This document shows, in pieces, positions 27,610-60,501 of a stretch of DNA of 64,000 nucleotides. Source of the stretch: Neisseria elongata subsp. elongata (GTDB lineage: Bacteria > Pseudomonadota > Gammaproteobacteria > Burkholderiales > Neisseriaceae). A program made the position numbers and the translations under genes. Positions within the stretch are counted from its first letter, which is position 1, and every line of letters starts with the position of its first letter. The stretch spans positions 1-64,000 of the forward strand of contig NZ_FOPS01000003.1 of the NCBI RefSeq assembly GCF_900113545.1, given 5' to 3'. The notes under the pieces are model-generated. The model did no database searches and had not been told where the DNA came from. It saw only the letters and a program-made list of their open reading frames with translations.

Positions 27610-28259
27610 TCAAAACGCCCGCCTAAATGCCACCGCCCGATAAACATGGGCAGGCAGTACGGTTTCATCGCCGGCCAAATCGGCAAGCGTACGCGCAACG
27701 CGCAAAATACGGTGGAAACTGCGCGCGGAAAGCGACAGCTTTTCCAGCATACCCGCCAACACCGCCTTCGCTTCCGGGCTGATTAAATCAGGCTTGTCCA
27801 AATCCGTCGGCAGCAATTTGCTGTTGGGCTTCCCCTGCCTCGCCTGCTGTCTGTCCCGCGCCTGCAACACCCTCCGCAAAACATCGGCACTGCTCTCGCC
27901 GGGCTTCATATCTGACAGTTCGGCAGCCGACAACACGGGTATTTCCACAATCAAATCAATCCTATCCAGCAAAGGTCCGGAAATTTTCCCGCGATACCGC
28001 GAAATGCTGTCGGGCGTACAACGGCAGGGCTTGGTCGGGTGGCCGAGATAGCCGCACGGACAGGGGTTCATCGCCGCCACCAATTGAAATTCGGCCGGAA
28101 ACACCGCCTGCCGCGCCGCACGCGAAATATGGATTTCCCCCGTTTCCAAAGGTTCGCGCAACGCCTCCAACACCTTGCGGTCAAACTCCGGCAACTCATC
28201 GAGAAACAAAATTCCCTTGTGGGCCAATGAAATCTCACCAGGCCGAAGATTATTGCTGT
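27610..28259 (-). pseudogene. comM: comM, 3' half (interrupted)
   Basis: C-terminal half of ComM, a hexameric AAA+ (Mg-chelatase-like) helicase that drives branch migration during natural transformation. It reads NNLRPGEISLAHKGILFLDELPEF (Walker B region) through AMNPCPCGYLGH (zinc-binding Cys motif) to RVARTLADLAGDETVL and the stop. It is separated from the 5' half by the 32-kb element. Joining 61354-60497 to 28254-27610 gives a 1,503-nt frame (500 codons plus stop) reading VGGGNSNNLRPGE across the join. As it stands this half has no start and the protein is presumably lost. Confidence 0.95.
28255..28259 (+). repeat. Target-site duplication, left copy
   Basis: GCTGT directly precedes the element's first base; the same five bases follow the last base at 60497-60501. 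Five-base duplications are characteristic of Tn7-like transposition. On the comM coding strand the target is ACAGC. Confidence 0.95.
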
Positions 28260-28425
28260 TGTGATATTCAGAATAACCTGACACAAAACTCTGCTAAAAC
28301 CCTAATCTCTTCGTAAAATATTCAGAATAATGTGACACAAAAATTCAGAAATAGATGAAACACGGTCTTTTTATACCAGAAATAAGTAAAACACAGTAAA
28401 TCACATCAGAAATAAATAAAACACT
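28260..28425 (+). repeat. Left (tnsA-side) end: five TnsB-site-like repeats
   Basis: Five direct copies of a roughly 22-bp motif of the form ATTCAGAAATARRTGAAACA. Copies start at 28266 (ATTCAGAATAACCTGACACA), 28320, 28343, 28375 and 28404. The outer two are the closest to each other; the inner three have drifted to CAGAAATAARTAAAACAC. Multiple transposase-binding sites at each end are typical of Tn7 elements. Confidence 0.85.
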
Positions 28426-28427
28426 CT

Positions 28428-28433
28428 TATAAT
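28428..28433 (+). promoter_or_regulatory. Possible -10 box for the tns operon
   Basis: TATAAT lies 36 nt upstream of the tnsA start and 2-3 nt past the innermost TnsB-like repeat. The place where a -35 box should be is inside that repeat, so bound TnsB would occlude the promoter; autorepression is inferred. The ribosome site AAGGGTG precedes the ATG at 28469. Confidence 0.5.
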
Positions 28434-28468
28434 CTTATTTCAAGTAGTTATTTTATAAGGGTGTTTTT

Positions 28469-29104
28469 ATGTTTCATCCTGTGCGAGAGATCAAACCTAC
28501 ACGACGCAGTGTATCCGGGGTGTATCCATTCCGCAAACAGTATTCACTTGCTTACGAATCGTCTTTAGAGCGCGATTTTATTGTATTGCAAGAATTTGAC
28601 AGTTCTGTCATTGAAGTTATTGCCCAGCCCATCAAGATTCCTTTTTTGTTAAAAGGAAGAAATTATCACTATACGCCGGATTTCCTTGTGCTGTTTGAGC
28701 AAAGTTGTCTAAAGCGGGGAATGTTGGTCGAAGTCAAACCGGAATCCGAATGGCGCAACCATTGGCGTTCTTGGTTGTCGAAATGGAAGGCTGCTTACCG
28801 TTGGGCTGTTGAGCGGGATTTCCTGTTTCATATTTATGATGAGTCACGCATAAGAGGACAGCGGTTAGCGAATATCAAAACACTTTCACGTTTTCTCGAT
28901 AAGCAGTCTGACGATGCACTGGCCGGTCTGATTGCTGATTTTGTAGGTGACAGCATGGTTTCGATGGGAGATATTTTGTCGCACTTTTCAACTTTTCCTG
29001 CCTGCAGCTCGGAGGTCTATCGGATGCTGGCAAATCGAGGGTTGTTTTTTGACTTAGAAGGTCCTCTCTCTGCCGATACTTTGATATGGAGAAAAAATGA
29101 CTGA
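28469..29104 (+). CDS. tnsA: Tn7-like transposase endonuclease subunit TnsA
   Basis: Restriction-fold endonuclease (211 residues) that nicks the 5' ends of the element so that it moves by cut-and-paste. The catalytic arrangement is readable: Glu34 in YESSLERDF, Asp71 in HYTPDF, and the E-x-K pair Glu88/Lys90 in MLVEVKPE. The C-terminal part (about 110-211) is the winged-helix domain that contacts TnsC and TnsB. First gene of a five-gene overlapping operon; its stop overlaps tnsB by 8 nt. AT-rich compared with the flanking core genome. Confidence 0.92.
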   Translation: MFHPVREIKPTRRSVSGVYPFRKQYSLAYESSLERDFIVLQEFDSSVIEVIAQPIKIPFLLKGRNYHYTPDFLVLFEQSCLKRGMLVEVKPESEWRNHWRSWLSKWKAAYRWAVERDFLFHIYDESRIRGQRLANIKTLSRFLDKQSDDALAGLIADFVGDSMVSMGDILSHFSTFPACSSEVYRMLANRGLFFDLEGPLSADTLIWRKND

Positions 29105-30998
29105 TCCGGACAAACAAAAAAAGGCAACTTCCCGAGGTAAATTAAGCCTTTCTGTCAATGAGTATGTGCGTCACATTCCTACCAATCGGCAGTACCGGAT
29201 CAGTAAGCTGATTGACCACACTTATATTTTGGCTGCTAATGAAAACGGCCAAGAAAAAGTATTAAAAATTGAAGAATTGGGGTTACCGGAAACCAATATT
29301 ACTCCTTATACGGGAGACTTGGATCAACTTGAGGATAAGCTTTGGGCAGAAGCAAAATATCGCCATGAGTTGATCCAGCCATTGTTGAAAGATGAAATCG
29401 CCGGCAGAACAGCCATTGAAGCGTATGCAAAGGAAAAAGGAGTGGGTTATTCCTCTCTTTACCGCTGGCTGCGTGTTTATAAAACCAGCAACAGTATTTC
29501 TTCTCTAATTTCCCGACAAAGAGGCTGGTTGAAAGGTGCATCCAGACTGGATCAAGAAACAGAGAAAATCATTCAGGAATCCATTCAGAAATACTACTTA
29601 TCAGAACAACGTCTCTCCCCGATCAAAGTCATCCAGCAAATACGGGTTTTATGCCATCAGCAGGGCATCAAACCGCCGGCAGACAATTCAATCAGGAAGC
29701 GGATGAATGAACTGTCGGAGAAGGAAATTTTGCGTAGGCGCGGCTACAAAGAAAAGGCCAAAAACAAATTCCAGCCGAAGCCCGGCCGCTTTCCCGATGT
29801 ATCTTACCCTTTGGATGTGATCCAAATTGACCATACGCCGATGGATATCATCTTGGTGGACGATAAAACCCGCCAAGCTATCGGACGGCCTTGGTTGACG
29901 GTTGCCATTGACGTTTACAGCCGCATGATTTGTGGTTATTACCTATCTTTGGATGCTCCGTCTGAAATTTCGGTTGCTATGTGTATTGCCCATTGTGTAC
30001 TACCGAAAGAGGAATGGCTGTCAGCCAAAGGTGTAAATGGAGAGTGGAAGGTTTGGGGGTTGCCGAAAAAAATCCATGTGGACAATGGCATGGATTTCCG
30101 TACCGAAACCCTGAAAAGAGCCTGCCTTGAGTATGGTATTACCTTGGAATACCGACCTGTCAGGATGCCGAATTACGGTGGTCATATTGAACGCCTGATT
30201 GGTACTTTGATGCGGGAAAGTCATCAGTTAGCCGGCACTACGTTTTCCAATATAAAAGAAAAAGATAATTATAAATCAGTCAATAAGGCATCGTTCACGT
30301 TTGATGAACTGGAAGAATGGCTGTTGAATTTGATTGTGAATATTTATCACAAGCGTATTCACCGTGGTATTGAAATGCGGCCTGAAGATAAATGGGATCT
30401 CGGCATTTTCGGTAACGGTCGTGAACACATCGGATGCGGATTACCTGATATCCCTGTGGATAAAGAAAGGCTCATGTTGGATTTCATGCCTTTTACCTAC
30501 CGTACCATACAGGCTAATGGCGTGACGTGGGACGGAGTGCGTTATTTCGACTTCTGTCTGGCACCGTTTATTGGGAAGAGTGAGAACGGCAAATCGTGTG
30601 AATACCTGTTTCGACGGGATCCGCGCAATGTGGCAGTCATTTACTTTTTTAATCCGAATTCAAAAAGTTATGTCGGTATTCCTGCAGCGGATCAAAAGTT
30701 TCCCCGAACAAGCGTATGGCAACTGCGGGAAACAAAAAAACGTTTGCGTGAATTGGGAAGAAAAAATTACAACGAGCATCAATTGATTGAGGCAATACAG
30801 CAGATGAGTCGTTTAGAAGAGAGCGCACAACAAAAAACTTTGAAAGCACGACGGAAAAGGCAGCGCAATGTTCTTCACGATAGGCAGATTACCCCTATTA
30901 AACCCGATGTATCCCGAAACCTGCCACCTGTTTCGGAGATTGCAGTACCGGATGTGGCCGTAAAAGTTGAAATCAAACCATTTGAGGACATTGAGTGA
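29097..30998 (+). CDS. tnsB: Tn7-like transposase TnsB (DDE family)
   Basis: Rve-superfamily DDE transposase (633 residues) that binds the end repeats, cuts the 3' ends and joins them to target DNA. N-terminal helix-turn-helix domains lie at about 95-215; the catalytic core has Asp245 (VIQIDHTPMD), Asp329 (IHVDNGMDF) and Glu365 (GGHIERLIGT). A beta-barrel and a basic C-terminal tail (KARRKRQRN) follow, the tail being the part that contacts TnsC in relatives. The overlap with tnsC is ATGA (4 nt). Intact, so transposition could still be possible. Confidence 0.94.
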   Translation: MTDPDKQKKATSRGKLSLSVNEYVRHIPTNRQYRISKLIDHTYILAANENGQEKVLKIEELGLPETNITPYTGDLDQLEDKLWAEAKYRHELIQPLLKDEIAGRTAIEAYAKEKGVGYSSLYRWLRVYKTSNSISSLISRQRGWLKGASRLDQETEKIIQESIQKYYLSEQRLSPIKVIQQIRVLCHQQGIKPPADNSIRKRMNELSEKEILRRRGYKEKAKNKFQPKPGRFPDVSYPLDVIQIDHTPMDIILVDDKTRQAIGRPWLTVAIDVYSRMICGYYLSLDAPSEISVAMCIAHCVLPKEEWLSAKGVNGEWKVWGLPKKIHVDNGMDFRTETLKRACLEYGITLEYRPVRMPNYGGHIERLIGTLMRESHQLAGTTFSNIKEKDNYKSVNKASFTFDELEEWLLNLIVNIYHKRIHRGIEMRPEDKWDLGIFGNGREHIGCGLPDIPVDKERLMLDFMPFTYRTIQANGVTWDGVRYFDFCLAPFIGKSENGKSCEYLFRRDPRNVAVIYFFNPNSKSYVGIPAADQKFPRTSVWQLRETKKRLRELGRKNYNEHQLIEAIQQMSRLEESAQQKTLKARRKRQRNVLHDRQITPIKPDVSRNLPPVSEIAVPDVAVKVEIKPFEDIE

Positions 30999-31879
30999 TG
31001 GAACGCTATCCACATATCAACCCGAAGTTTCGACACTGTTTATCATTGTCGGATGAAGAGCGGATCACTTTTATCCGGGAATCTCGTTGGATTGGTTACA
31101 GTCAAGCGCGGGAAATCCTGCAGCTGTTGGAAGAAATGCTGAATTACCCGAAGAAACCGCGTATGCCAAATATTTTGTTGGTTGGTGAATCAAATAACGG
31201 CAAAACAACCTTGATTCATCATTTCTACAAAAAGCATGGTGAGGCATACGAAGACGAAGATCTGAACTTGGTCAAGCCGATTCTAATGATCGAGTCCCCT
31301 GCTATAGCCAGTGAAAAAGCATTATATATGGCTATTTTGAATGAGTTAATGGCGGTATACCGGGATACGGCGTCAGTTGAGACGCTTTACACGCAAACTT
31401 TGCATTTAATGCGTACTTTCGGGGTAAAAATGCTGATCATTGATGAATTTCATTCAATGTTCAGCGGAACGGCCCGCAAACAGCGGGACATGATGAATAC
31501 TTTAAAACGTCTGTGCAACGAATTACAGATTCCGATCATTGGCGTAGGTACAGAAAATGCGGTCAATATTTTACATACGGACAAACAGTTCGCCAGCCGT
31601 TTTGAAGTCTGGGAATTGCCGGCATGGGAATTCAACGAGGATTTCCTGCGCTTGATGATGTCTTTTGAATCCGTTTTGCCTTTAAGAGAAGCATCCAATC
31701 TTGCAAGCCCTGATATAGCAAGAGCAATCTTTTACAAAAGCAAAGGCAATTTGGGTAATGTGAGCAGGCTTTTGGAGCGCTGTGCGGTTGAGGCTATCCG
31801 GACAAAAACAGAGAAAATAAATTTGAAAGCCATTGAGAAGCAGCAGAACTTTATGTCTACTATAAAGGGGCTAGTATGA
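30995..31879 (+). CDS. tnsC: Tn7-like AAA+ regulator TnsC
   Basis: AAA+ ATPase (294 residues) that links target selection (TniQ or TnsE) to the transposase. Walker A is GESNNGKTTL (about 64-73) and Walker B is MLIIDEFH (about 145-152), followed by the sensor-1 region PIIGVGTENA and a C-terminal helical lid. It is short like TniB rather than like the longer Tn7 TnsC. It overlaps tnsB and tniQ by 4 nt each. Confidence 0.93.
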   Translation: MMERYPHINPKFRHCLSLSDEERITFIRESRWIGYSQAREILQLLEEMLNYPKKPRMPNILLVGESNNGKTTLIHHFYKKHGEAYEDEDLNLVKPILMIESPAIASEKALYMAILNELMAVYRDTASVETLYTQTLHLMRTFGVKMLIIDEFHSMFSGTARKQRDMMNTLKRLCNELQIPIIGVGTENAVNILHTDKQFASRFEVWELPAWEFNEDFLRLMMSFESVLPLREASNLASPDIARAIFYKSKGNLGNVSRLLERCAVEAIRTKTEKINLKAIEKQQNFMSTIKGLV

Positions 31880-32931
31880 AAATACGTACTCCGAAAATTA
31901 TTCCGGAAGAATCTTTAAGCTCTTGGATGATACGCATATCTTTGTTGAACGCTTGCGATATGTGGACTTTATCTTGGAAAGTCTGGGAGAAAGGCCGCCT
32001 CCTTACGAGTGACTTCGAGCGAAATCTCCCTGCAGAACGTATCCATCAACTGTCGGAGGTTTCTGGCAGACCGTATGCCGAGATTGATGCTCTACTGCTG
32101 ATTCACTCTGTGCGACAGCATACAGTAGTATTGAACACTGCGGGCAAAATTTGGCCTTGGATGATACCTATCGGTATCTGTTATAGAAGCCGGTCAATCG
32201 GACAACCATTTTGCCCGCAATGCTTTCAAGAAGGCACTCCCCATCTTCGTCGCGAGTGGCGTATGGCGTGGGCAACAGCTTGCAATAAGCATCGGATTTT
32301 ATTGCAAGATTGCTGTCCGGAATGCGGATTTTTATATTCCCCTACCAAATTAACCGGCTTCGAAAGGAGCATGGTATTTTGTCATCACTGTGGCCACGAC
32401 ATGCGGAAAAACTCAGTTAAGCCTGCTTTTTCTGCCATACAGTCTGCAATCGAGAAGAATAAGTTGTGTTGTTTCGGGCAGAAATGCGATATGTCCACAT
32501 GGCTGCTCACTTTGGATAATGCAGTCTGTTTAATTCGGAGAGCAACTTTGGCACCCACCGGATACATCAGTACCATGTTGCATGATTTAGGACTAATCCG
32601 ACTACCGGAGTCTCCGAAAACCGGCGGAACATTCGAATGGTTGCCAATTTGGGAACGTCATGCCTTATTAGAAGCCGCGGCCTGCGTGATAAGCCAACGC
32701 ATGTCCAATTTGATTCAATCGGCTCAGAAAAATCGTGTAACAAAAAGCACTTTACTAAACACATTGCATAGAGATCGGTCTCCTGTTTTTGTCGAATTAT
32801 ACGATCATCTCCCGGTTAGTGAGCGGACTTCAGGGTCAAAAACCAAGCACAACTGTCCACAATCGAAACAAGCCGTAATGAAGAAATGGGCTCGTTTGGA
32901 ACGTAAAATTCAAAGAGTCATTGCATCATGA
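31876..32931 (+). CDS. tniQ: TniQ/TnsD-family target-selection protein
   Basis: 351 residues. The TniQ signature is at the N-terminus (ESLSSWMIRISLLN) with zinc ligands CPQCF (about 112), CNKH, CCPECGFLY and CHHCGHD (about 170). The helix-turn-helix-rich C-terminus is expected to bind the attachment site. Given the insertion in comM, this protein is the likely comM-recognition factor (inference). It overlaps both neighbours by 4 nt. Confidence 0.9.
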   Translation: MKIRTPKIIPEESLSSWMIRISLLNACDMWTLSWKVWEKGRLLTSDFERNLPAERIHQLSEVSGRPYAEIDALLLIHSVRQHTVVLNTAGKIWPWMIPIGICYRSRSIGQPFCPQCFQEGTPHLRREWRMAWATACNKHRILLQDCCPECGFLYSPTKLTGFERSMVFCHHCGHDMRKNSVKPAFSAIQSAIEKNKLCCFGQKCDMSTWLLTLDNAVCLIRRATLAPTGYISTMLHDLGLIRLPESPKTGGTFEWLPIWERHALLEAAACVISQRMSNLIQSAQKNRVTKSTLLNTLHRDRSPVFVELYDHLPVSERTSGSKTKHNCPQSKQAVMKKWARLERKIQRVIAS

Positions 32932-34367
32932 AAGACTGCTCCCAATGTGGTAAATCCGTGCGGATATACAACCGGGTCTTCAACGGAATGGGGTATTGTG
33001 CTGCCTGCTATAATCGGGAGTTCAAACACAAGCCCTGTGCCAAGTGCGGCGAGATTTACCGCCTGCCTCACCGAGAAAAAGACGTCGTTTGTGACAAGTG
33101 CCAGAAAAACCGTCCGTGCCTGCGTTGCGGAAAAGAACATTACTCCATCGGAAAGCTGACTCAGTACGGTCCGGTGTGTCATGCTTGTGCTGTTTATTTC
33201 AGGGAGAAAAAAATCTGCTCTGTCTGTAAAAAGCAATCTTTCGGAGCTACCCGTTTGGGGAAAAGCGGTACGGGCGCTTGGTTTTGCCCAAGTTGTTATG
33301 GCAAGGCGAGAGGCCATGCCAGCTGTCCCCAGTGCGGTAGACACCGGATGTTACAAAAAACAGAGCATGGACTCATGTGCAAAAAATGTGCTACTGAAGG
33401 GCATACCAAATGCACAATCTGCCATGCAGAAATACCCGCAGGAAAAGGAAAAAAGTGTGATGATTGCGCTTGGGCAGAAAGGTTGGCACACCGAATAAAT
33501 TTACTCAAAGTTTCCGTTCGGAAAGGGGCAGTGCGGGACGCATTTCCTGTCTTCGCCCTGTGGTTGGCACAAGATGTCGGCAACGATAAAGCCGCCATGA
33601 CCATAGAGCGTTATGCCCCTTTTTTCCGCGATGCAGCGCAACAATGGCCTACCTTGCCGGATTTTCCAACCATTTTGAGCCACTTTAAACCCAAAGGCAT
33701 GCGCCGTTATCTCAAGGTCAAACAATGGTTGGAACAATTACCCAATCAGAAAACCGACAAGCAGTTGGCCGTAGACTTGGCCGAGCTGGACAGGATTGAA
33801 GTTTTACGGGGGAAGTTGGCCGGCAACCCCGTTGCAGAAAGCTTATTTGACAGCTATCACGACAAATTGCTTTCAAAGTATCACGCTGGTAAAACATCCA
33901 TTACTTCCATCCGTTTAGCGATGCAGCCTGTTATCGGTTTAATGCAAGGCTTTAACCATTTTCCGACTCAGAAGGATATTGATGCCTATTTGAGAAAAAA
34001 ACCAGGGCAGAGAGCCGCACTGACTGGGTTTATCAGTTACCTACGCCGTGAGCATGCTTTGGATTTGCACATCAGCAAAGTCACGAAAAAAGACCAACAG
34101 CGAATGAAAGTTGCCAAAAGGAATGCTTTGGAAAAAAAGGTGATTGCTTATATCATGCGTTGCTACAAAGATCCGGATGCTTTCCGGTTACATGATTGGC
34201 TCAGACTGGCCCTGCCGTATTTCCATTGGCGGGAAATACGCTCAGAGTATACTGTTATCGAACGTCCCGACGGCTATATGGTATCTCAATTGGGAGAAGA
34301 AATGTTTGTCCCCAAACTGACAGGTGAATTTAGTTTTATGAAAAAAGTTATGGCTGAAATAAATTAG
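32928..34367 (+). CDS. Zinc-ribbon-rich transposon protein, TnsF-like candidate
   Basis: 479 residues, fifth gene of the tns operon (ATGA overlap with tniQ). The first 185 residues hold about a dozen CxxC pairs (CSQCGK, CAKCGE, CDKCQK, CLRCGKEH, CSVCKK, CPQCGRHR, CTICHAE), so it probably binds several zinc ions. Residues about 330-400 (SITSIRLAMQPVIG through AALTGFISYLRREHAL) resemble the SAM-like core-binding domain of tyrosine recombinases; the C-terminus shows no complete R-H-R-Y catalytic set. From memory, comM-type Tn7-like elements carry a recombinase-derived accessory protein called TnsF; I assign this one tentatively. The role is unproven. Confidence 0.6.
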   Translation: MKDCSQCGKSVRIYNRVFNGMGYCAACYNREFKHKPCAKCGEIYRLPHREKDVVCDKCQKNRPCLRCGKEHYSIGKLTQYGPVCHACAVYFREKKICSVCKKQSFGATRLGKSGTGAWFCPSCYGKARGHASCPQCGRHRMLQKTEHGLMCKKCATEGHTKCTICHAEIPAGKGKKCDDCAWAERLAHRINLLKVSVRKGAVRDAFPVFALWLAQDVGNDKAAMTIERYAPFFRDAAQQWPTLPDFPTILSHFKPKGMRRYLKVKQWLEQLPNQKTDKQLAVDLAELDRIEVLRGKLAGNPVAESLFDSYHDKLLSKYHAGKTSITSIRLAMQPVIGLMQGFNHFPTQKDIDAYLRKKPGQRAALTGFISYLRREHALDLHISKVTKKDQQRMKVAKRNALEKKVIAYIMRCYKDPDAFRLHDWLRLALPYFHWREIRSEYTVIERPDGYMVSQLGEEMFVPKLTGEFSFMKKVMAEIN

Positions 34368-34898
34368 CATCCATGCCGGTTACATTAGCATTATTCATTT
34401 TAAAGGGTTTTTCCGCAACATTTTCAATAGCACTTTATACAGATCATCATGCCGGTAGTTGAAGCGGAACTCGGTTTCTTTTAAATGCAGGTAAAAGGTA
34501 TGCTTCGGTACCCCGTTAAATTGTACCAAACGATGCTTGGCATAGCTCCAAAAGGATTCAATACCGTTGATATGTTGCACACTTCGAGCAAACTCATTGT
34601 CGCCGTGACGAACTCTAAAATGTTTGGCAAAACCCATGTCGACCAATCCCTGACAGCCCCGCCAGCCGTCGGTATTGGTCACACCCTCAATCACGATACG
34701 GCCTCGGATAACCTTTTGCAGCGTTGCTTTGGAAGCATCGGGAACGATTTCGGTATAAACCTTGTCGCCTCGTTTGAGGATGTCGAAGACGATGGTTTTA
34801 CCGCCTGCTCCGCGCCCGCGTTTACCTCGGATGCGCTTTGCACCGAAATAGGATTCGTCTAATTCTACAATGTCGTAGAAAGGCGTGTGCTGTTCGCA
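34368..34898 (-). mobile_element. Truncated IS1595-family (ISXO2-like) element
   Basis: The minus strand encodes the C-terminal two-thirds of an ISXO2-like DDE transposase, ending at 34395. The catalytic regions VELDESYFGAKR, NTDGWRGCQ and HINGIESFWSYAK are present, but the N-terminal zinc-ribbon/HTH is lost. On the transposase-start side the homology stops abruptly at about 34898, where it abuts an unrelated HTH gene fragment. The other boundary is set just after the stop of the preceding gene and is approximate. A different subgroup from the copy at 56.3 kb. Confidence 0.75.
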
Positions 34899-35067
34899 TT
34901 TCCGGCTATCTGAAAATGAGCCGCAGCAAGCTCTATCAGATGGCCCCAAAAGGCGACCTGCCAGTTTCAAGATCGGAACCCAATGGCGATTCGACCGAGA
35001 CAAGATCGATGACTGGGTGAAAAGTCACAAGTTTTCTACTTCGAGAAATAAGGATGGCATCCAATAA
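34899..35067 (+). pseudogene. Excisionase-type HTH protein remnant, truncated and frameshifted
   Basis: Joining two frames gives GYLKMSRSKLYQMAPKGDLP then FKIGTQWRFDRDKIDDWVK and a stop at 35067. This is the HTH_17 (MerR/excisionase) fold. One T appears to be missing in CCAGTTTCAAG, which shifts the frame at about 34969, and the start codon was removed at the IS junction. The stop codon overlaps the ATG of the dynamin-like gene, so the intact gene was probably its operon partner. Confidence 0.7.
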
Positions 35068-37183: not shown

Positions 37184-38696
37184 ATGGCCACCGAAAAATT
37201 CGAACTATATCAATGGACAACCATCGGTAATAATTTGCTTTTTCGCTCAAGGCAGTGTTTGGAGACCGCCCCTAAGGCCCGATCATGATGAAATTACATA
37301 CAGAGCAATTGCAGGTGCCGACCTCCTTGTCTTTGTTGTAACAAATGAGCTGTTTGATTCTCACCTCGCAAAACATTTTCGCAACCTTGCCATAGAACGT
37401 GACAAGGCACATGAAATGATGCTTGTAGTCAACAAAATGAGAAGGTGCGCCAAAGGCAACAGCCAGGAAGCACAGAATGTTATTCGTGAGGATCTTCGCA
37501 AGGTCCTCGCCCCTTTCACCCCCGAAGACCTTGGCACTACCTTTATCGATGCCGAAGCTGCGCTCGAAAGCAAAACAGAGACAGATGACGAAATAGCAAA
37601 AATTCTGTTGAAGAAAAGCGGCGTCGACGGATTCACACAAGAGCTAAACAGGTTCGTTAGAGAAAAAGGGTTGTCTTCTCGATACACAACGGCGCTTTAT
37701 AGCCTTGAGCAGATTCTCCAAGAAGCACTTGCCAGTGAATCCACGGGTGATAAGGACATTGATGCACTCGAAGCGCTTTTGTTGCAGCGTCGCCGAGCAC
37801 TCTTGTATACACAGGATCGTATACCACGGGCGGTGGAAGGAGAAATTCAAAACGCGAGTTCTCAAATCCGGCAGGAAGGACGAAAAGTCGCGGACATGAT
37901 CAATGGTTCTGCCGATCAGAAAGCTGTTGATCAGGAGCTGCAAGCCGCACAGGATCGCGTTCAAAACCTTGCTGAACAGCTTGAAAAATCTGTTCAGGTT
38001 GTCATTGGCAAGCACATGAAAGCATTAGATGACCGCGTTGGCGATATTGCCAACAGTGAGCTTGCCAAAGAGTTGCTTCCGCGCCTCGTTCATCGGATTG
38101 AGCAGGCATCTATTTCGCCTGAAGCAATGAAAAACCTCAAAAAAGCATCGGATATATCTTCCAAGCTGGGTGAATTTCTGGTCAGGAACTCTTTTACGCC
38201 AAAAACTGGAACCCTCGGAGGCCTTTTCAAACTCAACCAATATTCCGGTACGGCAACCCACGGTGCAGTGAAAGCTATTGGTAAATTTTTCGGGAAGTCC
38301 TTCAAGCCATGGGAAGCGGTCAAATGGACACGCACTGTGGCAAATGTTGGACGAGTTTTCACAGTGGCGGGAACGGTTCTTACATTTGTATTGCAAATCA
38401 AAGAAGACGCAGATGCAGCTCAACTTGAAGTTGATCTTAGAGAAAGTCGTTCGGCGGTGAGGTCTGGATTTAACGATGCCGCGCATGTAATTGAAATGCA
38501 CTTTGATAAGGCGACACAATCATTTGTCTCAAGTGCCATTTCTTCCGAGATAGAAAATGTTGATTCACAGTTGGATGAACTCCGTAATTTGCAGCAAACC
38601 CGGAGTGACCTGTTTCAAAATCTTCTAGGACTGCTGGAAGAGACCAGGGAGCTTATCAAAAGCATTCACTCAACTGAGAGCGGATCAGTTTCATAG
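37184..38696 (+). pseudogene. Second dynamin-like GTPase, P-loop region deleted and frameshifted
   Basis: An ATG at 37184 with the ribosome site AAGGAG opens MATEKFELYQWTTIGNNLLF but meets a stop by 37288. The real frame resumes at about 37255 as LRPDHDEITYRAIAGADLLV, and continues through VVNKMRR (G4-like) to 38696. No GxxxxGK[ST] loop exists between the two parts, so the stretch with G1-G3 is missing along with the frame. The remaining helical part (about 470 codons) is intact and includes a long coiled coil. Internal ATG starts (37416) would give a protein without a working GTPase. Confidence 0.7.
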
Positions 38697-41057: not shown

Positions 41058-41067
41058 GGGAATGAGC

Positions 41068-41523: not shown

Positions 41524-41546
41524 CGCTACGGGGAAGAGAGAACCAT

Positions 41547-49037: not shown

Positions 49038-51865
<2,828 letters not shown>

Positions 51866-51869
<4 letters not shown>

Positions 51870-53881
51870 GCCAGTGGTCAGAACGCATTCTCAGCCACTT
51901 CACGGCCGATCTCACCCGGCTGTGGGTGGCGTGCGACCCCGACGATGTGCTGCTGGACGAAAAGCTGTTGTCCGAACTGCGCGGTCGCGGCTTCGAGGTC
52001 ATGCTGTACGAAGACCCGTTCGCCTTCCGTGCTGAATACGAGGAACGCTATCGCGCAGCCTGGGATTGCGGTGAACCGGGGCCAGCGCCTTCGCTGGTTC
52101 TGCATCTGCGCAGCGCCGACGCGAATGCGCTGCCTTGGGACATCGTGCACCACGGACGTGTGGTTCGATTAAGCCTTGCGGAGCTCTTCCCCAGACTGGC
52201 ATACAGCGCGGTACAGCAAGTCGAGCCGGAGCATTTTGCCGGGCTGTTTCATGCCCACCAGACCGAATTGCAGTCAGCGCGCGGCGAGAACGAGTCCAAG
52301 GACTTCATTCTCGAACACGTCTACCAACTGACGCCGAGATCCATTCGCAACCCGGTCGACTTCTGGCGCGAGCTGCTGCGCATGCACTTCGCCAACCGCT
52401 CGTTGCCACCTCTGTTTGCTCAACACACGGCAGGCATCATTCAAGGCAAGGGGCTGCTCGTCGACCAACCCGTCGCCACATGGCTGGCATCCAAGAGTGC
52501 GCTGCTGCGCGTCGTGCAGGACGCGTGGTATCGCTACCTGAAAAACCTGGGGCTGGATGGCACCCGAACTGGCGAACCTCCGCCACCGGACTACGTCGCA
52601 AAGATCGAGATTCCGTTCGATCACTCCGATGTGCAGGTGCTGGTCGACTCCATGTTCCTCGACGGCAGCTTGAGTCCGCTCGCGGCGCACAATGTTCTGG
52701 CGGGGATGCCGAGTTGGATCAAGGCCGGCATCGTCCAGGACCCCGCTGCATTGCAGGCTTTGGTGCTCAAAGGCATCGATGGCCTGATCGAGACGACCCC
52801 AACAGCCGCCTCCTCGCACAAGGACTGGAGCGAGTTCGCCAAGCGCTACGGCGAGATCCTGGCTCGCACGCATAGCCTGCCCGGCACGGAAGGCAGCGAA
52901 CACCTACCCGTGATTCGGGAACGGATCAAGACCTTGCAGGCGCAATCGGACGAGCATCTGCAAGCCTGGGTCGCAGCCAAGCATTACGCCGACCTGATCC
53001 TGCAACCAGTGACCAAAGGCCCGGTGATGGTGCACCACGTGCCACGCTTCTTGCGCCATCGGCGGTCCGCAGGGGAAACCAAGGTCGCATTGCTGGTATT
53101 CGACGGGTTGGCCTTCGACCAGTGGGTGCAGATCCGGGAGCGCCTGATTGCCACCACCAAGCGCTTCGCGTTCGATGAGGGAACCGCATTCGCATGGCTG
53201 CCGACCGTGACATCGGTATCGCGCCAGGCGCTGTTTTCTGGATTGAAACCGCGTGAGTTCGACGACTCCATCGACCGGACGGACAAGGAGGAATCCTTGT
53301 GGAAGACGTTCTGGCAGAACGAAGGCGTCAACGCGAATGAGGTGATGTATCGACGTGCGCTACGTCAGACCCATCAGCTAGACGCACTTGAAGTGGATTT
53401 GAATGACCGTCGACCGAAGGTGGTGGGCCTGGTCATCGATGAGGTGGACGATCGGCTCCACAAGGAGCGGTCCAAGAAGGACGTGGCGATGTGGATCGGG
53501 AACTGGTTGACGACTGGTTTCGTCGACCGGCTTTTCTCGCTGCTGCTGGACAAGGGATACCACATCTATCTCACGGCGGACCACGGCAACGTAGAGTCCA
53601 CCGGCGTCGGCAGACCCAACCAAGGTGTGATTGCCGAGACGCGCGGCGAGCGCGTTCGGGTCTACCGGAGTGAGCCACTGCTGGCCGATTCTGCTGCGGC
53701 CTATCCCACCACAGTCAGGTTGGACATCGCTGGACTGCCCGCGAACTTCATGCCCCTATTCGCAGGCGGACGAACCGCCTTTGTGCCGGAGGGTGAGCAG
53801 GTGGTAGTCCACGGCGGGGTGTCGGTCGAAGAGTTGATCGTGCCCTTTGTGAAAGTCAGTTATGTGATTGGTACCGAATGA
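51866..53881 (+). CDS. pglZ: BREX protein PglZ (alkaline phosphatase superfamily)
   Basis: 671 residues, metal-dependent phosphatase fold. Nucleophile/metal region VALLVFDGLAFDQW near 403 and the C-terminal metal site YLTADHGNVESTG near 570 are the visible landmarks. PglZ is the gene common to all BREX types; its substrate is unresolved. It overlaps brxHII and brxA by 4 nt each, so the three are translationally coupled. Confidence 0.93.
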
Positions 53882-54600
53882 ATTCATCAGCCCCAAAAAT
53901 AGGCTTTGATCGGTTCATTCAGCTTGATTGGGCGGCTGCGGCACTGAATGTTCGTGCGGGCGTGGCTGGGCTAAATGATCTGAATGCACTGCTCGATGCA
54001 GCCGAGCTTGGCTTGGAAGCCAAGAAGAAAACACGCACCGTGCTGAATCGGCTGTGGCTGGAGCCACGCGCCGAATTGGTCGAGTACGCCGATCGCGGCG
54101 TGGCCATCCACCAGACGCAGCCGGACACTCCCATCTCAGCACTGTGCTGGGGCATGTCCGTGGCGACGTACCCGTTCTTTGGGAAGGTAGCCGAGCTGGT
54201 GGGCCGCCTGTCCGCGATTCAGGGCGACTGCGCGTCCGCCGAGGTCCATCGGCGCATGAGTGAAACCTATGGGGAGCGCGAAGGCACCCGGCGTATGACC
54301 AACATGGTCATCCAAAGCCAGGCGAGTTGGGGCGCCGTGGAGCGGGTCGAAAAAGGCAAGCGGGTCATTCGCTTGCCACAGACGAGCATCGACAACGATG
54401 CGCTCACTGCTTGGCTGATCGAAGCTGCTGTGCGCTACGCAGGTAAGCCCGTTTCAGTACCCAGTCTGCAGTCGCTGCCCGTGCTGTTCCCGTTCAACTT
54501 GACGCGGCCCCTGGCCTACGTGGCGTCGAACAGCCCGAGCCTCGACCTCCGGTCGGAAGGCCCGAGTAACCAGTTCGTCGCTTTGCGCAGCACGATATGA
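53878..54600 (+). CDS. brxA: BREX protein BrxA
   Basis: 240 residues, small helical protein of the DUF1819/BrxA type expected at the end of a type 3 BREX operon. Visible landmarks are the tryptophan/arginine-rich N-terminal half (VLNRLWLEPRAEL, LCWGMSVATYPFFGKVAELVGRL) and the segment EGTRRMTNMVIQSQASWGAVE, a candidate winged-helix DNA-binding region. GC-rich, coupled to pglZ. Identification rests on size, place and these features together. Confidence 0.8.
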   Translation: MNSSAPKIGFDRFIQLDWAAAALNVRAGVAGLNDLNALLDAAELGLEAKKKTRTVLNRLWLEPRAELVEYADRGVAIHQTQPDTPISALCWGMSVATYPFFGKVAELVGRLSAIQGDCASAEVHRRMSETYGEREGTRRMTNMVIQSQASWGAVERVEKGKRVIRLPQTSIDNDALTAWLIEAAVRYAGKPVSVPSLQSLPVLFPFNLTRPLAYVASNSPSLDLRSEGPSNQFVALRSTI

Positions 54601-55521: not shown

Positions 55522-56302
55522 GTGAAGATTATGGACAGAATCGATATCGACACTTGGGCACACATCAGCGCTGAAGGTTGGAGCTCTCTCGTTCTGGGCA
55601 ACGGCGCCAGCATCGCCATCCACAAGGAGTTTGCAAACCCCACACTCCATGGCATTGCTGATGCAAAAGGATTGCTTGTCCCCACTGCTCCAATATTCGC
55701 CAAGCTCTGGACAACTGATTTCGAGCACGTCAACGTGGCATTGTGGACGCCGTCCTGCCTACTCGGAAATATGCACAGCGCTGATCGAAGCGGTGCACAG
55801 TGTGCATCCGGTGCATGCCGATGTTGCCACCGACCTACAGCAGACCAGTGCGTTTGCGAGCGTATTTCCAACTGGCGTCAGCCTGAACTACGACCTCACC
55901 TTGTACTGGGCTATGCTGCTGCTCAATGCGGCGCATGGGAGTTGGTTCAATGACGCGTTCCACGACGGGGGGCAAACGGATTTGGAATATCTACGGAGAC
56001 CCTATGGACAGGCTGCAGGCGCAACATTGGTTTTCTACCCTCACGGCAGTCTTGCGGTTGCGCGTGACTACCTTGGTGATGAGACAAAGCTCGCTGTTGA
56101 CGCGGGAGCCGCAGGCGACCTGCTAGACACGATCACGCTCAGGTGGTCATCCGGGAACTACGTGCCCGTGTTTGTTAGCGAGGGAACCAGCAAGCAGAAA
56201 ATTGCCGCAATTCGTCGGAGCCACTACCTGACGAACGTGTACGAAGAGGTTTTGCCCAGCCTCGGAGAGAGTTTGGTCATGTATGGCTGGAGCTTTGACG
56301 AA
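55522..56302 (+). pseudogene. SIR2-like (DUF4917) defence protein, frameshifted and truncated
   Basis: The first frame reads DTWAHISAEGWSSLVLGNGA and on to TLHGIADAKGLLVPTAPIFAK. At about 55750 the coherent frame moves to ICTALIEAVHSVHPVHADVA, VSLNYDLTLYWAMLLLN, VFYPHGSLAVARD, and GTSKQKIAAIRRSHYLTNVY up to LVMYGWSFDEG. GNGAS (NAD-loop) plus NYDL and a central histidine are the SIR2-like arrangement of DUF4917 proteins, NADases in several phage-defence systems. The 3' end is cut off by the IS at 56303, so two lesions make it inactive. Confidence 0.7.
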
Positions 56303-57015
56303 GGGGCTGACGTAGATTAGCAGTTATGCTAGGCTACAAAAATACAGATAACCAATTGTAAATTAAGCAAGAGAACTCAAAAGAAACTGCTTGAATTTTT
56401 TGTACTCCAAGTTACCGCCCGTTCCGCTGCCGATATTTTGGACATTCAGCCCAACTCCGCCATTCTGTTCTACCGCAAAATCCGTATGGTCATCAGCTAT
56501 CATTTGGCCTTGGCTACCGATGAGGTTTTTGAGGGCTCTGTCGAGTTGGACGAAAGCTATTTCGTCGGACGGCGTAAAGGCAGACGTGGTCGCGGTGCGG
56601 CAGGAAAAGTGGTTGTCTTTGGCACTCTGAAACGCAACGGACGGGTCTATACCGTTGTCGTAGATAATGCCAAGTCTGAAACGTTACTCCCTGTCATCAA
56701 AAAGAAAATCATGCCGGACAGTATTGTTTATACCGATAGTCTGAGCAGCTACGACAAGTTGGACGTGAGCGGTTTTACCCATCACCGCATCAACCATTCC
56801 AAGGAATTTACAGACCGTCAAAACTACATTAACGGCATTGAGAATTTTTGGAATCAGGCAAAACGCGTCTTGCGAAAATACAACGGAATCGATCGCAAAT
56901 CTTTTCCGCTGTTCTTGAAAGAATGCGAATTTCGATTTAACTTCGGCACACCATCTCAGCAGCTAAAAATCCTGCGGGAGTGGTGTGGAATTTAAGGCTA
57001 ATCTAGTACAGCCCC
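56303..57015 (+). mobile_element. IS1016-like element (IS1595 family), structurally complete
   Basis: 713 bp between imperfect terminal repeats GGGGCTGACGTAGATTAG and (complement) GGGGCTGTACTAGATTAG. Contains one transposase frame. The 8 bp on each side (TTGACGAA and ATTAAATT) do not match, so the flanks have rearranged since insertion. A 56-bp left-end copy in inverted orientation lies at 58687-58742. Confidence 0.85.
56342..56995 (+). pseudogene. IS1016-like transposase with its start codon changed to ATA
   Basis: 217 codons in frame: the HTH region KKLLEFFVLQVTARSAADIL, and DDE-type positions in VELDESYFVGRRKGRRG, VYTDSLSSYD and HINGIENFWNQ-type sequence (here YINGIENFWNQAKR). The reading frame begins ATA CAG ATA ACC. 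The inverted left-end remnant at 58687-58742 has ATG CAG ATA ACC at the same place, so a G-to-A change removed the start. Otherwise intact. Confidence 0.8.
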
Positions 57016-57120: not shown

Positions 57121-57720
57121 ATGATCCGCCTTGCCCTGTTCGCCGACATCCACGGCAAATTCCTGCTCCCATTCAAGCTGGCGCACCACTACCAGCAAAC
57201 CACCGGCAAATCCATAGACTTAATTGTCCAATGCGGCGATATGGGCGCATTCCCGGATAAGAGCCGTATGGACAAGGCCACGCTGCGTCATGCGGCAAGG
57301 GACCGCGATGAATTGGGCTTTATGGATGACTTTGTACACGCCAAGCCGCCGATCGCCCAATTCCTCGAGCGGCTCAACCTCAATATGCTCTGCGTGCGCG
57401 GCAATCATGAAGACCATGATTTTTTGGATGAATTGGAGCGGCAAAGCGTGCAGGCTGCTTTTCCGATTGATGCGTACCGGCGCGTTTGGGTGCTGAAAAC
57501 GGGCGAGCCGTTTGTGTTGCAGAAGGATGGCGAGTCGCTGGAAATTCTCGGCATCGGGCGCATTGGCGATAGGAAACAGCGGCCGCACGGCGAATTTATT
57601 CAGGAATATGAACGGCAAACCCTGCGCCGCTTTGTTAAAGACTGCCTGAAAAACAAACACGACCCCGATGTGTTGATAACGCACGACCAGCCTGCCGACA
57701 GCCAAAGCGGTTATTGCTGA
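57121..57720 (+). CDS. Calcineurin-like metallophosphoesterase, probably C-terminally shortened
   Basis: 199 residues. Dimetal motifs: FADIHG (8-13), QCGDMG (39-44), RGNHED (about 97) and THDQP (about 190). The second C-terminal histidine motif (GHxH) expected after this is missing, and the protein stops at SQSGYC, so the 3' end looks cut. A strong hairpin terminator follows. Next to uptake sequences of a foreign dialect, so it may come from Eikenella or another Neisseriaceae genus. Confidence 0.65.
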   Translation: MIRLALFADIHGKFLLPFKLAHHYQQTTGKSIDLIVQCGDMGAFPDKSRMDKATLRHAARDRDELGFMDDFVHAKPPIAQFLERLNLNMLCVRGNHEDHDFLDELERQSVQAAFPIDAYRRVWVLKTGEPFVLQKDGESLEILGIGRIGDRKQRPHGEFIQEYERQTLRRFVKDCLKNKHDPDVLITHDQPADSQSGYC

Positions 57721-57725
57721 TGCGG

Positions 57726-58687: not shown

Positions 58688-58742
58688 AATTGGTTATCTG
58701 CATTTTCGTAGCCTAGCATAACTGCTAATCTACGTCAGCCCC
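58687..58742 (-). mobile_element. 56-bp left-end remnant of an IS1016-like element, inverted
   Basis: The complement reads GGGGCTGACGTAGATTAGCA and continues to the CAATTG that touches the IS5 end at 58687. It matches the left end of the element at 56303 except for two changes, one of which restores the ATG of the transposase. It forms a roughly 56-bp inverted repeat with that copy across 2.3 kb. Confidence 0.85.
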
Positions 58743-58756
58743 ATTCATTATTAAAG

Positions 58757-60448
58757 TTAAAGCTCTCTCATGACTCTCTCCACCGTATTACGCCCTTCTT
58801 CCCCATGCTTGTACACCTTGTAATGAGTGTATAAGCTTTTCTTTATGAACTTGTTGAATACACCGGCATGTTTAACTACCTCACGCAATACCCAGTTAAC
58901 CCAGCGTGGTAAAGTGCTGACCATCTCATTTACTTCAACCATTAAGCCAGTAAAATCTTCTTTACCGTTTCTTCCTATCAGTTCAATGCATACCAGCTGC
59001 TTACCACCTGATAGCGTCAGGCGCATAACAAAAGCACCCACTACTGGTGGAGTGGTCCCTGTATTTCCGGCAATCTTGATAATACCTATGTCTGGTCTGG
59101 TTTCAAATGCCGTGCCATTCAGCCATTCGACTTCTGTGATTAGCCCCTGTCGCTTCAATTCTTGGGCTTCCAGCCACATCTGCTCATATCGTAGCGGCTT
59201 GGTTTCCATTCCCTGACCGACTATTCCGCCTACACTGGTGCCGGTTCCTTTTGCCGGCAATGTAGAGCCTGATCCTGGTATGTTGTCTATTGGAACAACC
59301 TTTCCGCCACCGACACCGACATCCTGATCTTTCGCCGTCACGATATTACGCTTATCCCCGATTAACTGATTATGTAGAGGCAAGGCAAGATTGGCAGCGT
59401 CCCAACTTGCTGTAAACGTGGCACTAACCGGCACTTCAGACAGCTTAACCGTCCTGCGAATAATGACCGGTTCGCCCCCTGAGCCGCTTCCGGAAGCCAT
59501 GCTTTTTTTCCACCACATGATGTCCGGACCGGGCGGGTCAGAAATACCGAGAATGTTCAGCCCGAGAAAACTTTTTTGATTATCGAATGGAATACCACGC
59601 ACCCGAATAGTCACATCGGGATGGGTGTGCCACGGCTCAGGAGCGAGGAAAACAAATGGAATAGAGCCTTTTTTACTTTGATTGAAAAAAGATTTGAAGC
59701 AATTATTTGCAAATTCATGAACCACTTGTTTCGTATGCGCATCTCGCTTCAAGTGAGCCAAAAATACCGCATCTTGCTTCACAAACTTGTGGGAAGGCTG
59801 CAAAACGTCCAAATTTCCCGAAGGCTTCAAATGCGAAGGGAAAGGCGGTAATAACAGACTCAGGATGCTGTCTCCTTGGCTCGGAGGTTTGATTTGATAA
59901 GGGTAGCTTGTCAAAATGCGTTTGAGTTCGGGCGAGTGGCCGTAAGCTGCCCGGAAGAAATCCGTACCGTTCAATACCAGCTTGCCACCATTATCCAAAT
60001 CAAACTCAATCAGCCGACTAAAATCATTTGCACCGTACAGCAAAGGGTAAAGATCAAGAGGGAAAGGGTCATTTTGCTTGCCCAACTTAGACTGGGCATT
60101 GAAGGTTTTATAACGCCAGCATCCCTCTGTAAATGATACTTTGAATTCAACAACAGGGTAATGGACTTCTTTAACAGACTTGCCGTTTATCCAGATAGAA
60201 CCAATACGGTACTGCCCTAAAAGGGGAAGCGGGAGAATTTCTTTCACAATCTTCCCCAACTCCAAGCCGGTATAAGTTCGATCCAGAATTTCTCTGAAAA
60301 GCACTTGCAGATTATTTTGACCCGATTCCGAACCTTTTACCAAGGCGGCATACCACCAAAGCAGATAGGGCCGGTTCGGTGACAGCTTCGCCAGTGAGAA
60401 GGTAGACGTAACAGGATTTTTGATTGTATAGGGATAGGTGAGCATCAT
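58757..60448 (-). CDS. tnsE: TnsE-like transposon target-selection protein
   Basis: 563 residues (Tn7 TnsE is 538). It opens MMLTYPYTIKNPVTSTFSLA. The centre has VTIRVRGIPFDNQKSFLGLN (about 275-295), which lines up with the WKLHVKG...VGLEI region recalled from Tn7 TnsE. The C-terminal domain GIIKIAGNTG...LVCIELIGRNGKEDFTGLMV, then LPRWVNWVLREVVKH, matches the TnsE C-terminal fold in order. TnsE directs insertion to replicating and conjugal DNA. Transcribed convergently with the tns operon from the other end, as tniE is in AbaR elements. Its start is 48 bp from the terminus and overlaps end repeats. Confidence 0.7.
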   Translation of the reverse strand: MMLTYPYTIKNPVTSTFSLAKLSPNRPYLLWWYAALVKGSESGQNNLQVLFREILDRTYTGLELGKIVKEILPLPLLGQYRIGSIWINGKSVKEVHYPVVEFKVSFTEGCWRYKTFNAQSKLGKQNDPFPLDLYPLLYGANDFSRLIEFDLDNGGKLVLNGTDFFRAAYGHSPELKRILTSYPYQIKPPSQGDSILSLLLPPFPSHLKPSGNLDVLQPSHKFVKQDAVFLAHLKRDAHTKQVVHEFANNCFKSFFNQSKKGSIPFVFLAPEPWHTHPDVTIRVRGIPFDNQKSFLGLNILGISDPPGPDIMWWKKSMASGSGSGGEPVIIRRTVKLSEVPVSATFTASWDAANLALPLHNQLIGDKRNIVTAKDQDVGVGGGKVVPIDNIPGSGSTLPAKGTGTSVGGIVGQGMETKPLRYEQMWLEAQELKRQGLITEVEWLNGTAFETRPDIGIIKIAGNTGTTPPVVGAFVMRLTLSGGKQLVCIELIGRNGKEDFTGLMVEVNEMVSTLPRWVNWVLREVVKHAGVFNKFIKKSLYTHYKVYKHGEEGRNTVERVMREL

Positions 60449-60496
60449 TTTGTGTCACCTATTTCTGATTTGTGTCAGATTATTCTGAATACCACA
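60449..60496 (-). repeat. Right (tnsE-side) end: two abutting TnsB-site-like repeats
   Basis: On the complement, from the terminus: TGTGGT, then ATTCAGAATAATCTGACACA (60490-60469), then ATCAGAAATAGGTGACACAA (60470-60450). Only two adjacent sites lie here against five spaced over 160 bp at the other end, the kind of asymmetry that gives Tn7 elements their fixed orientation. The inner repeat touches the tnsE start codon. Confidence 0.85.
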
Positions 60497-60501
60497 GCTG
60501 T
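60497..60501 (+). repeat. Target-site duplication, right copy
   Basis: GCTGT immediately after the last element base, identical to 28255-28259. Confidence 0.95.

What the first reader, a model, noticed from the sequence alone, without database searches (positions are those of the whole stretch)
28255..60501. Complete Tn7-like transposon with exact ends in the comM gene of a Neisseria
Both termini, the 5-bp duplication and a restorable comM frame (858 + 645 = 1,503 nt) can be read directly. The comM-targeting Tn7-like family is known from Acinetobacter (AbaR/Tn6022); I am not aware of a described Neisseria example with a BREX cargo. The duplicated target (ACAGC on the coding strand) lies 4 nt from the ACCGC/GCGGT duplication I recall for AbaR, within the same GGCGGTAACAGC codons.
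Basis: partly seen in the sequence, partly recalled or inferred. Interest (0 to 1): 0.88.

Follow-up and report, generated by a model that had tools for sequence, protein, structure and literature searches.

The report
Competence-gene transposon carrying phage defence
A 32-kb jumping element of a known type sits in a DNA-uptake gene (comM) of a Neisseria and carries a complete-looking anti-phage system; its position in an unusually long copy of that gene hints at how such elements measure where to land.

Summary
A 32,237-bp element (28260-60496) has 28-bp inverted ends (26/28 identical), is flanked by GCTGT copies, and splits comM, which reads as one 1,503-nt frame when joined. It is a Tn6022-type Tn7-like transposon: tnsA-tnsB-tnsC-tniQ-tnsF in one operon, and a tnsE-like gene on the other strand at the far end. 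TnsF is the published comM target selector (PMC10293859). The lineage is divergent: TnsF is 23-38% identical to 62 of 63 named loci (one 120-residue fragment, 47%). Its ends occur nowhere else in 83 family genomes. Cargo: a type III-like BREX operon, Leo-type genes, IS and phage fragments. The host comM has two extra codons at the site. In 33 of 36 paired junctions the element lies exactly 17 nt before the PGE proline codon (59 nt before the Walker-B Asp codon), including both comM length variants; two are off by 1 nt, one shows no duplication. This suggests the register is set from the Walker-B side. A second Tn7-like element in this genome lies in the 3' end of lipA.

The parts
28255..28259 (.). 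target-site duplication, left copy (GCTGT)
   Evidence: sequence
60497..60501 (.). target-site duplication, right copy (GCTGT)
   Evidence: sequence
28260..28287 (+). left terminal inverted repeat (28 bp)
60469..60496 (-). right terminal inverted repeat (28 bp)
28262..28424 (+). left end array of five TnsB-type repeats (28262, 28316, 28339, 28376, 28406)
   Evidence: role as TnsB sites inferred
60449..60488 (-). right end, two TnsB-type repeats, abutting the start of the tnsE-like gene
   Evidence: role inferred
28469..29104 (+). tnsA
   Evidence: Pfam Tn7_TnsA-like_N 4.8e-15; DFLV...EVK motif
29097..30998 (+). tnsB, DDE transposase
   Evidence: Pfam Mu-transpos_C and rve (rve below its Pfam cut-off); PDB TnsB of Tn6677 1.3e-48
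30995..31879 (+). tnsC (TniB-type AAA+ ATPase)
   Evidence: Pfam TniB 1.7e-70; Walker A and B motifs
31876..32931 (+). tniQ, short (351 aa)
   Evidence: Pfam TniQ 6.8e-17
32928..34367 (+). tnsF, comM target selector: Cys-rich N-terminal part, helical C-terminal part
   Evidence: relatives in the same position next to split comM; conserved Cys columns
58757..60448 (-). tnsE-like gene at the far end, opposite strand
   Evidence: same place and strand as in Tn6022-type relatives, 23-29% identity; no Pfam or PDB match
60497..61354 (-). comM 5' part (858 nt, includes right GCTGT)
27610..28254 (-). comM 3' part (645 nt)
34395..35003 (-). IS1595-family transposase ORF (cargo)
   Evidence: Pfam 5.4e-19
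35067..37166 (+). LeoBC-like dynamin-type GTPase (cargo)
   Evidence: PADLOC LeoBC 8.7e-108
37416..38696 (+). LeoA-like, matches only from profile position 166 on (probably N-truncated)
   Evidence: PADLOC LeoA 3e-65, 166-556 of 559
40143..41057 (+). WYL-domain regulator
   Evidence: Pfam WYL 3.3e-13
40993..41523 (+). brxF
   Evidence: PADLOC 4.2e-48
41520..45287 (+). brxC (DUF6079 type)
   Evidence: Pfam DUF6079 full length; PADLOC BrxC 1831 bits
45336..48152 (+). pglXI methyltransferase
   Evidence: PADLOC PglXI 1346 bits
48269..48988 (+). unknown 239-aa protein inside the BREX operon
   Evidence: no match in Pfam, PADLOC, NCBIfam or PHROGs
49038..51869 (+). brxH helicase
   Evidence: PADLOC BrxHI 1454 bits
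51866..53881 (+). pglZ
   Evidence: PADLOC 5.1e-247
53878..54600 (+). brxA
   Evidence: PADLOC 5.2e-70
55631..56320 (+). DUF4917 protein, PDC-S21-like
56438..56995 (+). IS1595-family transposase (cargo)
   Evidence: Pfam 1.1e-32
57121..57720 (+). metallophosphoesterase-like ORF
   Evidence: Pfam Metallophos 6.7e-9

Best explanation
A complete, probably mobile Tn6022-type Tn7-like transposon inserted in comM. Inferred mechanism, by homology with the reconstituted A. johnsonii Tn6022: TnsF binds the Walker-B-coding DNA of comM, the short TniQ links it to TnsC, and TnsA+TnsB cut the element out at its TGT...ACA ends and join it with a 5-bp duplication. The insertion lies 17 bp before the PGE proline codon (59 bp before the Walker-B Asp codon), breaking comM. 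The far-end tnsE-like gene would serve a second route, to conjugative plasmids. Shown here: ends, duplication, gene set, family-wide register. Inferred: activity, TnsF binding, TnsE role, lowered transformation from comM loss, phage restriction by the BREX cargo.
For: Ends, duplication and frame. TnsA/TnsB/TnsC/TniQ families; 4- to 8-nt start-stop overlaps, so one operon. TnsF relatives lie beside tnsABC-tniQ and a comM 3' part with readable PGE in 48 of 65 loci (window, L009 and 63 named loci); 44 of 48 have ACA exactly 17 nt before the PGE proline codon, 2 have TCA there, 2 are off by one. Of 36 paired junctions (PGE-side nt, valine-side nt): 31 at (17,9), 1 at (17,12), the window at (17,15), 1 at (16,10), 1 at (18,8), 1 without a duplication. 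The same gene set was shown to be needed for comM insertion by Tn6022 (PMC10293859, passages). A second Neisseriaceae genome, G003, has a related element whose left end is at the same comM point. 0 copies of the 10-nt uptake core GCCGTCTGAA in 32,237 bp against 36 in 28,259 bp and 4 in 3,504 bp of flank: foreign DNA.
Against: Foldseek found no PDB match at E 0.001 or better for the TnsF model (pLDDT 90.4), so the dead tyrosine-recombinase fold was not reproduced; VIA-align was unavailable. The tnsE-like gene matches no Pfam or PDB entry. No conspecific empty site was available. The window's place in the TnsB tree rests on a long branch. G003's right end joins comM near residue 173, so its duplication cannot be checked. 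One pair, L156/L082, shows no duplication.
Confidence: 0.93

Rival explanations
1. The element is a decayed, immobile island at comM: once a Tn6022-type transposon, now only a carrier of BREX.
For: Cargo is patched with IS and phage fragments and a truncated LeoA-like gene; no second copy in 83 family genomes.
Against: All six tns-type genes are open; catalytic and Walker motifs of TnsA, TnsB and TnsC are present; both ends and both duplications are exact; the comM halves are open.
Confidence: 0.15
2. The site is chosen by local sequence (GNGGN glycine codons) rather than by distance from the Walker-B codons.
For: 34 of 35 duplications found are glycine-codon sequence (32 of 35 fit GNGGN; the two wobble cases are GGCGG and CGGGG).
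Against: The window's GCGGT was passed over for ACAGC, which fits the 17-nt register; in the Lysobacter MAG (L105/L155) a GNGGN also exists in the valine-side register but the insertion is again at 17.
Confidence: 0.1
3. The two extra comM codons are a scar of an earlier insertion and loss at the same site, not natural loop variation.
For: They sit exactly at the hot spot and none of 29 congener loci has a nine-codon loop; the flank shares the 8-mer AATAATCT with the element's right end.
Against: Loop length varies anyway (7 codons in 25 and 5 in 4 of 29 congeners; 8 in L105); by hand estimate an 8-mer match is not unlikely; 6 extra nt is not a multiple of the 5-bp duplication.
Confidence: 0.12

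Closest known systems
Tn6022 / AbaR backbone of Acinetobacter (Tn7-like, TnsABC-TniQ-TnsF-TnsE, comM)
   Same: Gene order, short TniQ overlapping TnsF, tnsE-like gene at the far end on the other strand, 5-bp duplication, same comM register.
   Different: TnsF 31-36% and TnsB 37-43% identical to the Acinetobacter copies compared; different end sequence; BREX cargo; Neisseria host; longer comM loop.
Tn6022-type elements of Pasteurellaceae and the G003 element (another Neisseriaceae genus)
   Same: Nearest in the TnsB tree, SH-aLRT 98; same comM point.
   Different: About 46-48% TnsB identity; long branch, so placement is unsure; different end sequences. G003 groups inside the Pasteurellaceae type (branch 0.013); the window element does not.
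Tsy transposons (active tyrosine-recombinase relative of TnsF, comM)
   Same: Target comM through a TnsF relative (PMC10293859).
   Different: Have no Tn7 components; the window element has tnsABC and a 5-bp duplication.
Type III BREX
   Same: brxF, brxC, pglXI, brxH, pglZ, brxA in order (type III gene list recalled).
   Different: Extra 239-aa ORF between pglXI and brxH; in a megablast search of plasmids only two records matched, the better 75% identical over 41% of the operon (Roseomonas).

Membership tests
Tn7-like transposons | TnsA-type endonuclease, DDE TnsB, AAA+ TnsC, TniQ | tested here: met
Tn7-like transposons | TGT...ACA ends, several TnsB-type repeats at both ends, 5-bp duplication | tested here: met
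   that the repeats bind TnsB is inferred
Tn6022 family | short TniQ in an operon with TnsF (zinc-finger N-terminal region) | tested here: met
   ATGA overlap; paired Cys columns invariant in 41 sequences; zinc binding itself not tested
Tn6022 family | TnsF C-terminal part is an inactive tyrosine-recombinase fold | tested here: inconclusive
   no invariant or nearly invariant Tyr after position 310 in 41 sequences; no significant Foldseek match
Tn6022 family | insertion in comM at the family's fixed point | tested here: met
   ACA 17 nt before the PGE proline codon, as in 44 of 48 loci
Tn6022 family | tnsE on the opposite strand at the far end | tested here: inconclusive
   place and strand met, 23-29% identity to relatives' genes; no Pfam or PDB match
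Tn6022 family | TnsF-dependent transposition | not testable with these tools
   shown by others for A. johnsonii Tn6022
BREX type III | brxF, brxC, pglXI, brxH, pglZ, brxA, all open (gene list of type III recalled) | tested here: met
BREX type III | blocks phage, methylates host DNA | not testable with these tools
   needs an experiment

The most novel reading that the evidence does not exclude
comM copies whose loop before PGE is longer by one or two codons act as a natural ruler test: the element keeps 59 bp to the Walker-B Asp codon and ignores the upstream glycine codons and the local sequence. TnsF therefore sets the register from one side only, which helps explain how one kind of selector can hit comM across distant phyla. 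The window element would also be the first described of a separate Neisseria lineage of Tn6022-type elements carrying type III BREX.
Probability: 0.65. Interest if true: 0.5.

Novelty: new member of a known kind. Interest (0 to 1): 0.42.

Why it matters
It takes the comM-targeting Tn6022 kind into Neisseria, a genus known for competence guided by DNA uptake sequences, with an element that lacks that sequence altogether and whose entry breaks a transformation gene. It carries a defence operon whose BrxC scores 50 bits against a cut-off of 400 for NF033441, the model that the published Tn7 cargo survey lists for BREX, so such cargo may be undercounted. The two comM length variants turn a question about TnsF's ruler into a simple plasmid-target experiment.

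Tried and rejected
Single-protein TnsF scans of viral contigs and genome contigs gave no relatives; the alignment-based scan did. AlphaFold2 of TnsF alone was poor (pLDDT 49.9); with an alignment of 41 sequences it reached 90.4, but Foldseek gave no match at E 0.001 or better. A profile search of solved structures with TnsF gave only weak matches, best E 0.012, a zinc-finger protein. Twelve window cargo proteins (Leo, BREX, DUF4917, phosphoesterase) against 70 loci of Tn6022-type and related elements: none at E 1e-10 (repeated, where the tns proteins matched as positive control); most of those loci reach only about 10 kb past tnsF. PglZ in 83 family genomes at E 1e-30: only the window's own.

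Literature, held open-access library only: Tn7-like + comM + Neisseria, 29 papers, 20 listed (a loose search: 'comm' also matches words such as 'common'); PMC11472951 was the one whose passages I read. Tn6022 + comM + TniQ, any two: 170 papers, 20 listed. TnsF + comM + Tn7, any two, whole word: 60 papers, 25 listed. Neisseria + 'Tn7-like transposon' + BREX: 0 papers. Neisseria + comM + transposon + insertion: 33 papers, 15 listed; passages of two more read. None that I saw describes a Neisseria comM insertion. No paper was read whole.

The idea that the 8-mer AATAATCT beside the insertion is a footprint was set aside as too likely by chance (hand estimate, not computed).

Rows dropped: one search leaves out 17 of 65 loci with no readable comM 3' part with PGE. 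In one search I gave 39 genomes; of the 48 loci, the window, L009, L050 (cut at its contig end) and six loci with both halves in hand were not given. 36 of 39 had a match, 30 became loci, and six with only partial matches were not read. One search leaves out the pair L138/L052, because L138 is an intact comM elsewhere in that MAG. Of 45 congeners, 39 matched the joined site and 29 became loci; 10 matched without a locus and 6 had no match, and these 16 were not read. One search read 28 of the 29 (L017 failed a motif filter); one search read 29 of 29. The TnsB tree leaves out eight loci by hand (L047, L051, L063, L064, L084, L096, L102, L104) and sequences under 550 aa. Alignment A3 holds the window and 40 of 58 TnsF sequences of suitable length. 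In some searches my comM 5' query was in the wrong frame; it was put right.
Full report
OBSERVATION. The window holds a 32,237-bp element, 28260-60496. Its ends are TGTGATATTCAGAATAACCTGACACAAA (left) and, read inward, TGTGGTATTCAGAATAATCTGACACAAA (right), 26 of 28 identical. GCTGT flanks it at 28255-28259 and 60497-60501. Dropping the element and one GCTGT gives one open comM frame of 858 + 645 = 1,503 nt, 500 aa plus stop. The joined site finds only the two halves in the host genome. The 28-bp end, up to 3 mismatches, occurs in 1 of 83 family genomes, only at these two places; the reversed-pattern control gives none. The left end has five TnsB-type repeats, the right end two.

WHAT IT IS. 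Left operon: tnsA (Pfam TnsA-like), tnsB (Mu-transpos_C and rve, the latter below its Pfam cut-off; nearest solved relative Tn6677 TnsB, 1.3e-48), tnsC (TniB, 1.7e-70), tniQ (351 aa), and a 479-aa gene with no family match. Genes overlap by 4-8 nt. At the other end, on the opposite strand, is a 563-aa gene. This is the layout published for Tn6022 (TnsA, TnsB, TnsC, TniQ, TnsF; tnsE on the opposite strand), in which TnsF has N-terminal zinc fingers and directs insertion into comM (PMC10293859, passages only). The 479-aa protein is TnsF by position, by its Cys-rich N-terminal part and by similarity to same-position genes (best-segment identity 23-38% in 62 of 63 named loci; L102, a 120-residue fragment, 47%). 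In 41 aligned TnsF sequences the Cys pairs from residue 24 to 180 are invariant and no Tyr beyond position 310 is invariant or nearly so. An AlphaFold2 model from that alignment has pLDDT 90.4, but Foldseek found no PDB match at E 0.001 or better, so the published XerH-like fold was not independently reproduced. The 563-aa gene aligns at 23-29% with same-place genes of relatives but matches no Pfam or PDB entry: TnsE-like by place, not by proof.

DISTRIBUTION. TnsF was sought in 83 family genomes at E 1e-5: 3 matched. They are the window's genome; G003, of another genus, with tnsABC-tniQ-tnsF and a tnsE-like gene in comM; and G053, a C-terminal fragment of about 120 aa, with no TnsB match in that genome. 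In 369 genomes drawn evenly from the class, 2 matched at E 1e-20: own and G240. A genome-contig scan with the TnsF alignment gave 63 named loci, chiefly Acinetobacter, Halomonadaceae, Pasteurellaceae and other Pseudomonadota, with Campylobacterota and a Methylacidimicrobium; none is titled Neisseria, though records very near the window's genome may be left out. In a TnsB tree (57 rows, quick method) the window is sister to the Pasteurellaceae + G003 group (SH-aLRT 98) on a long branch of 1.03; the program warns that such joins may be false. G003's TnsB sits inside the Pasteurellaceae type on a branch of 0.013, so at least two different Tn6022-type lineages have entered Neisseriaceae.

WHERE IT LANDS. 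In 65 loci (window, L009, 63 named), 48 gave a readable comM 3' part with the PGE motif. In 44 of 48 the element's terminal ACA ends exactly 17 nt before the proline codon of PGE; 2 more have TCA there; L049 and L078 are off by one. The comM 5' half was sought in 39 genomes of these loci: 36 had a match, and 30 loci were made. With six loci that already held both halves and the window, 37 pairs were read; one (L138/L052) was dropped because its 5' half proved to be an intact comM. Of the 36 left: 31 have 17 nt on the PGE side and 9 nt after the valine/isoleucine codon on the other; L105/L155 (a Lysobacter MAG) has 17 and 12; the window has 17 and 15; L049 and L078 have 16 and 18 with proper duplications; L082/L156 (Pasteurella bettyae) shows no duplication. 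The PGE-to-Walker-B distance is 14 codons in 36 of 36. So in the two comM genes whose loop is longer, by one and two codons, the element kept 17 nt to PGE (59 nt to the Walker-B Asp codon) and not the distance to the upstream glycine codons. The window's duplication is ACAGC, the only one of 35 that is not glycine-codon sequence, although GCGGT lies 6 nt upstream unused. Because both copies are ACAGC, the long loop must pre-date the insertion. In 29 of 29 congener loci comM is continuous across the site, with 7 codons (25) or 5 codons (4) in this loop and none with 9; none has ACAGC at the 17-nt register. The reading that TnsF sets the register from the Walker-B side agrees with the published need for a 10-bp Walker-B region, but rests on two natural cases.

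CARGO. 34.4-58.7 kb: IS1595-family transposases (34395, 56438), LeoBC-like and N-truncated LeoA-like genes (35067-38696), phage head and integrase fragments (38694-39663), a WYL regulator, then brxF, brxC (DUF6079 type), pglXI, an unknown 239-aa ORF, brxH, pglZ, brxA, all open. This is the type III BREX gene set (list recalled). GC is 58% in BREX, 44% in the tns block and 53% in the left flank, so cargo and carrier probably have different sources. In a megablast search of plasmids two records matched the operon, the better 75% identical over 41% (Roseomonas). PglZ occurs in 1 of 83 family genomes at E 1e-30, the window's own. BREX is already known as cargo of Tn7-like elements (40 listed under BrxC NF033441, PMC8649781, passages); the window's BrxC scores 50 bits against that model's cut-off of 400, so a count based on it would probably miss this type. 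Hosts of comM insertions named in the passages read include Acinetobacter, Aggregatibacter, Mannheimia, Francisella, Pseudomonas and, for Tsy, Zoogloea (PMC4774983, PMC11472951, PMC10293859), not Neisseria.

ORIGIN. The element has 0 copies of GCCGTCTGAA; the flanks have 36 in 28,259 bp and 4 in 3,504 bp. It is foreign to the Neisseria uptake system, so carriage by plasmid (the TnsE route) or transfer with flanking host DNA are the likely ways in; this is inference.

VERDICT. A new member of a known kind, confirmed in detail. The added value is the natural ruler test, the Neisseria host, the BREX type III cargo and a second element at lipA in the same genome. The family and its comM mechanism are published, hence a moderate score.

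Noticed in passing
L011 (G000:C10) 5299-16410: A second complete Tn7-like element in the same genome (tnsABC, 345-aa TniQ, a second 590-aa far-end gene, type III restriction-modification cargo) lies in the last codons of lipA with duplication GAATG; its end supplies a new lipA stop codon. A close relative in G048 has duplication AAAAT at the lipA end (read by eye); related genes lie beside lipA in G013 (broken) and G002, but lipA was not in the 20-kb stretches read of G024 and G050. lipA as a Tn7-like site was not found in the one paper search made (1 listing) or in the main text of PMC10293859.
   Followed up: partly
L009 (G003) 4500-19390: Another Neisseriaceae genus carries a Pasteurellaceae-type Tn6022 element with its left end at the same comM point; its right end joins comM near residue 173, so part of comM seems deleted.
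   Followed up: partly
L012 (G053) 6099-10482: A 120-aa ORF like the TnsF C-terminus follows two large recombinase-like ORFs (by eye) and smaller ORFs, in a genome without this TnsB; perhaps a remnant of a Tsy-like or other recombinase element.
   Followed up: no
window 48269-48988: A 239-aa ORF between pglXI and brxH has no match in Pfam, PADLOC, NCBIfam or PHROGs.
   Followed up: no
window 28260-60496: The whole element lacks the uptake core GCCGTCTGAA, while the lipA element has one copy, near 9415 of L011.
   Followed up: yes
L156 with L082 (Pasteurella bettyae): The only one of 36 paired junctions with no matching duplication at the two ends.
   Followed up: no
window 34395-35003 and L009 13692-14159: Closely similar IS1595-family transposase ORFs lie inside both Neisseriaceae comM elements, judged by eye.
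   Followed up: no
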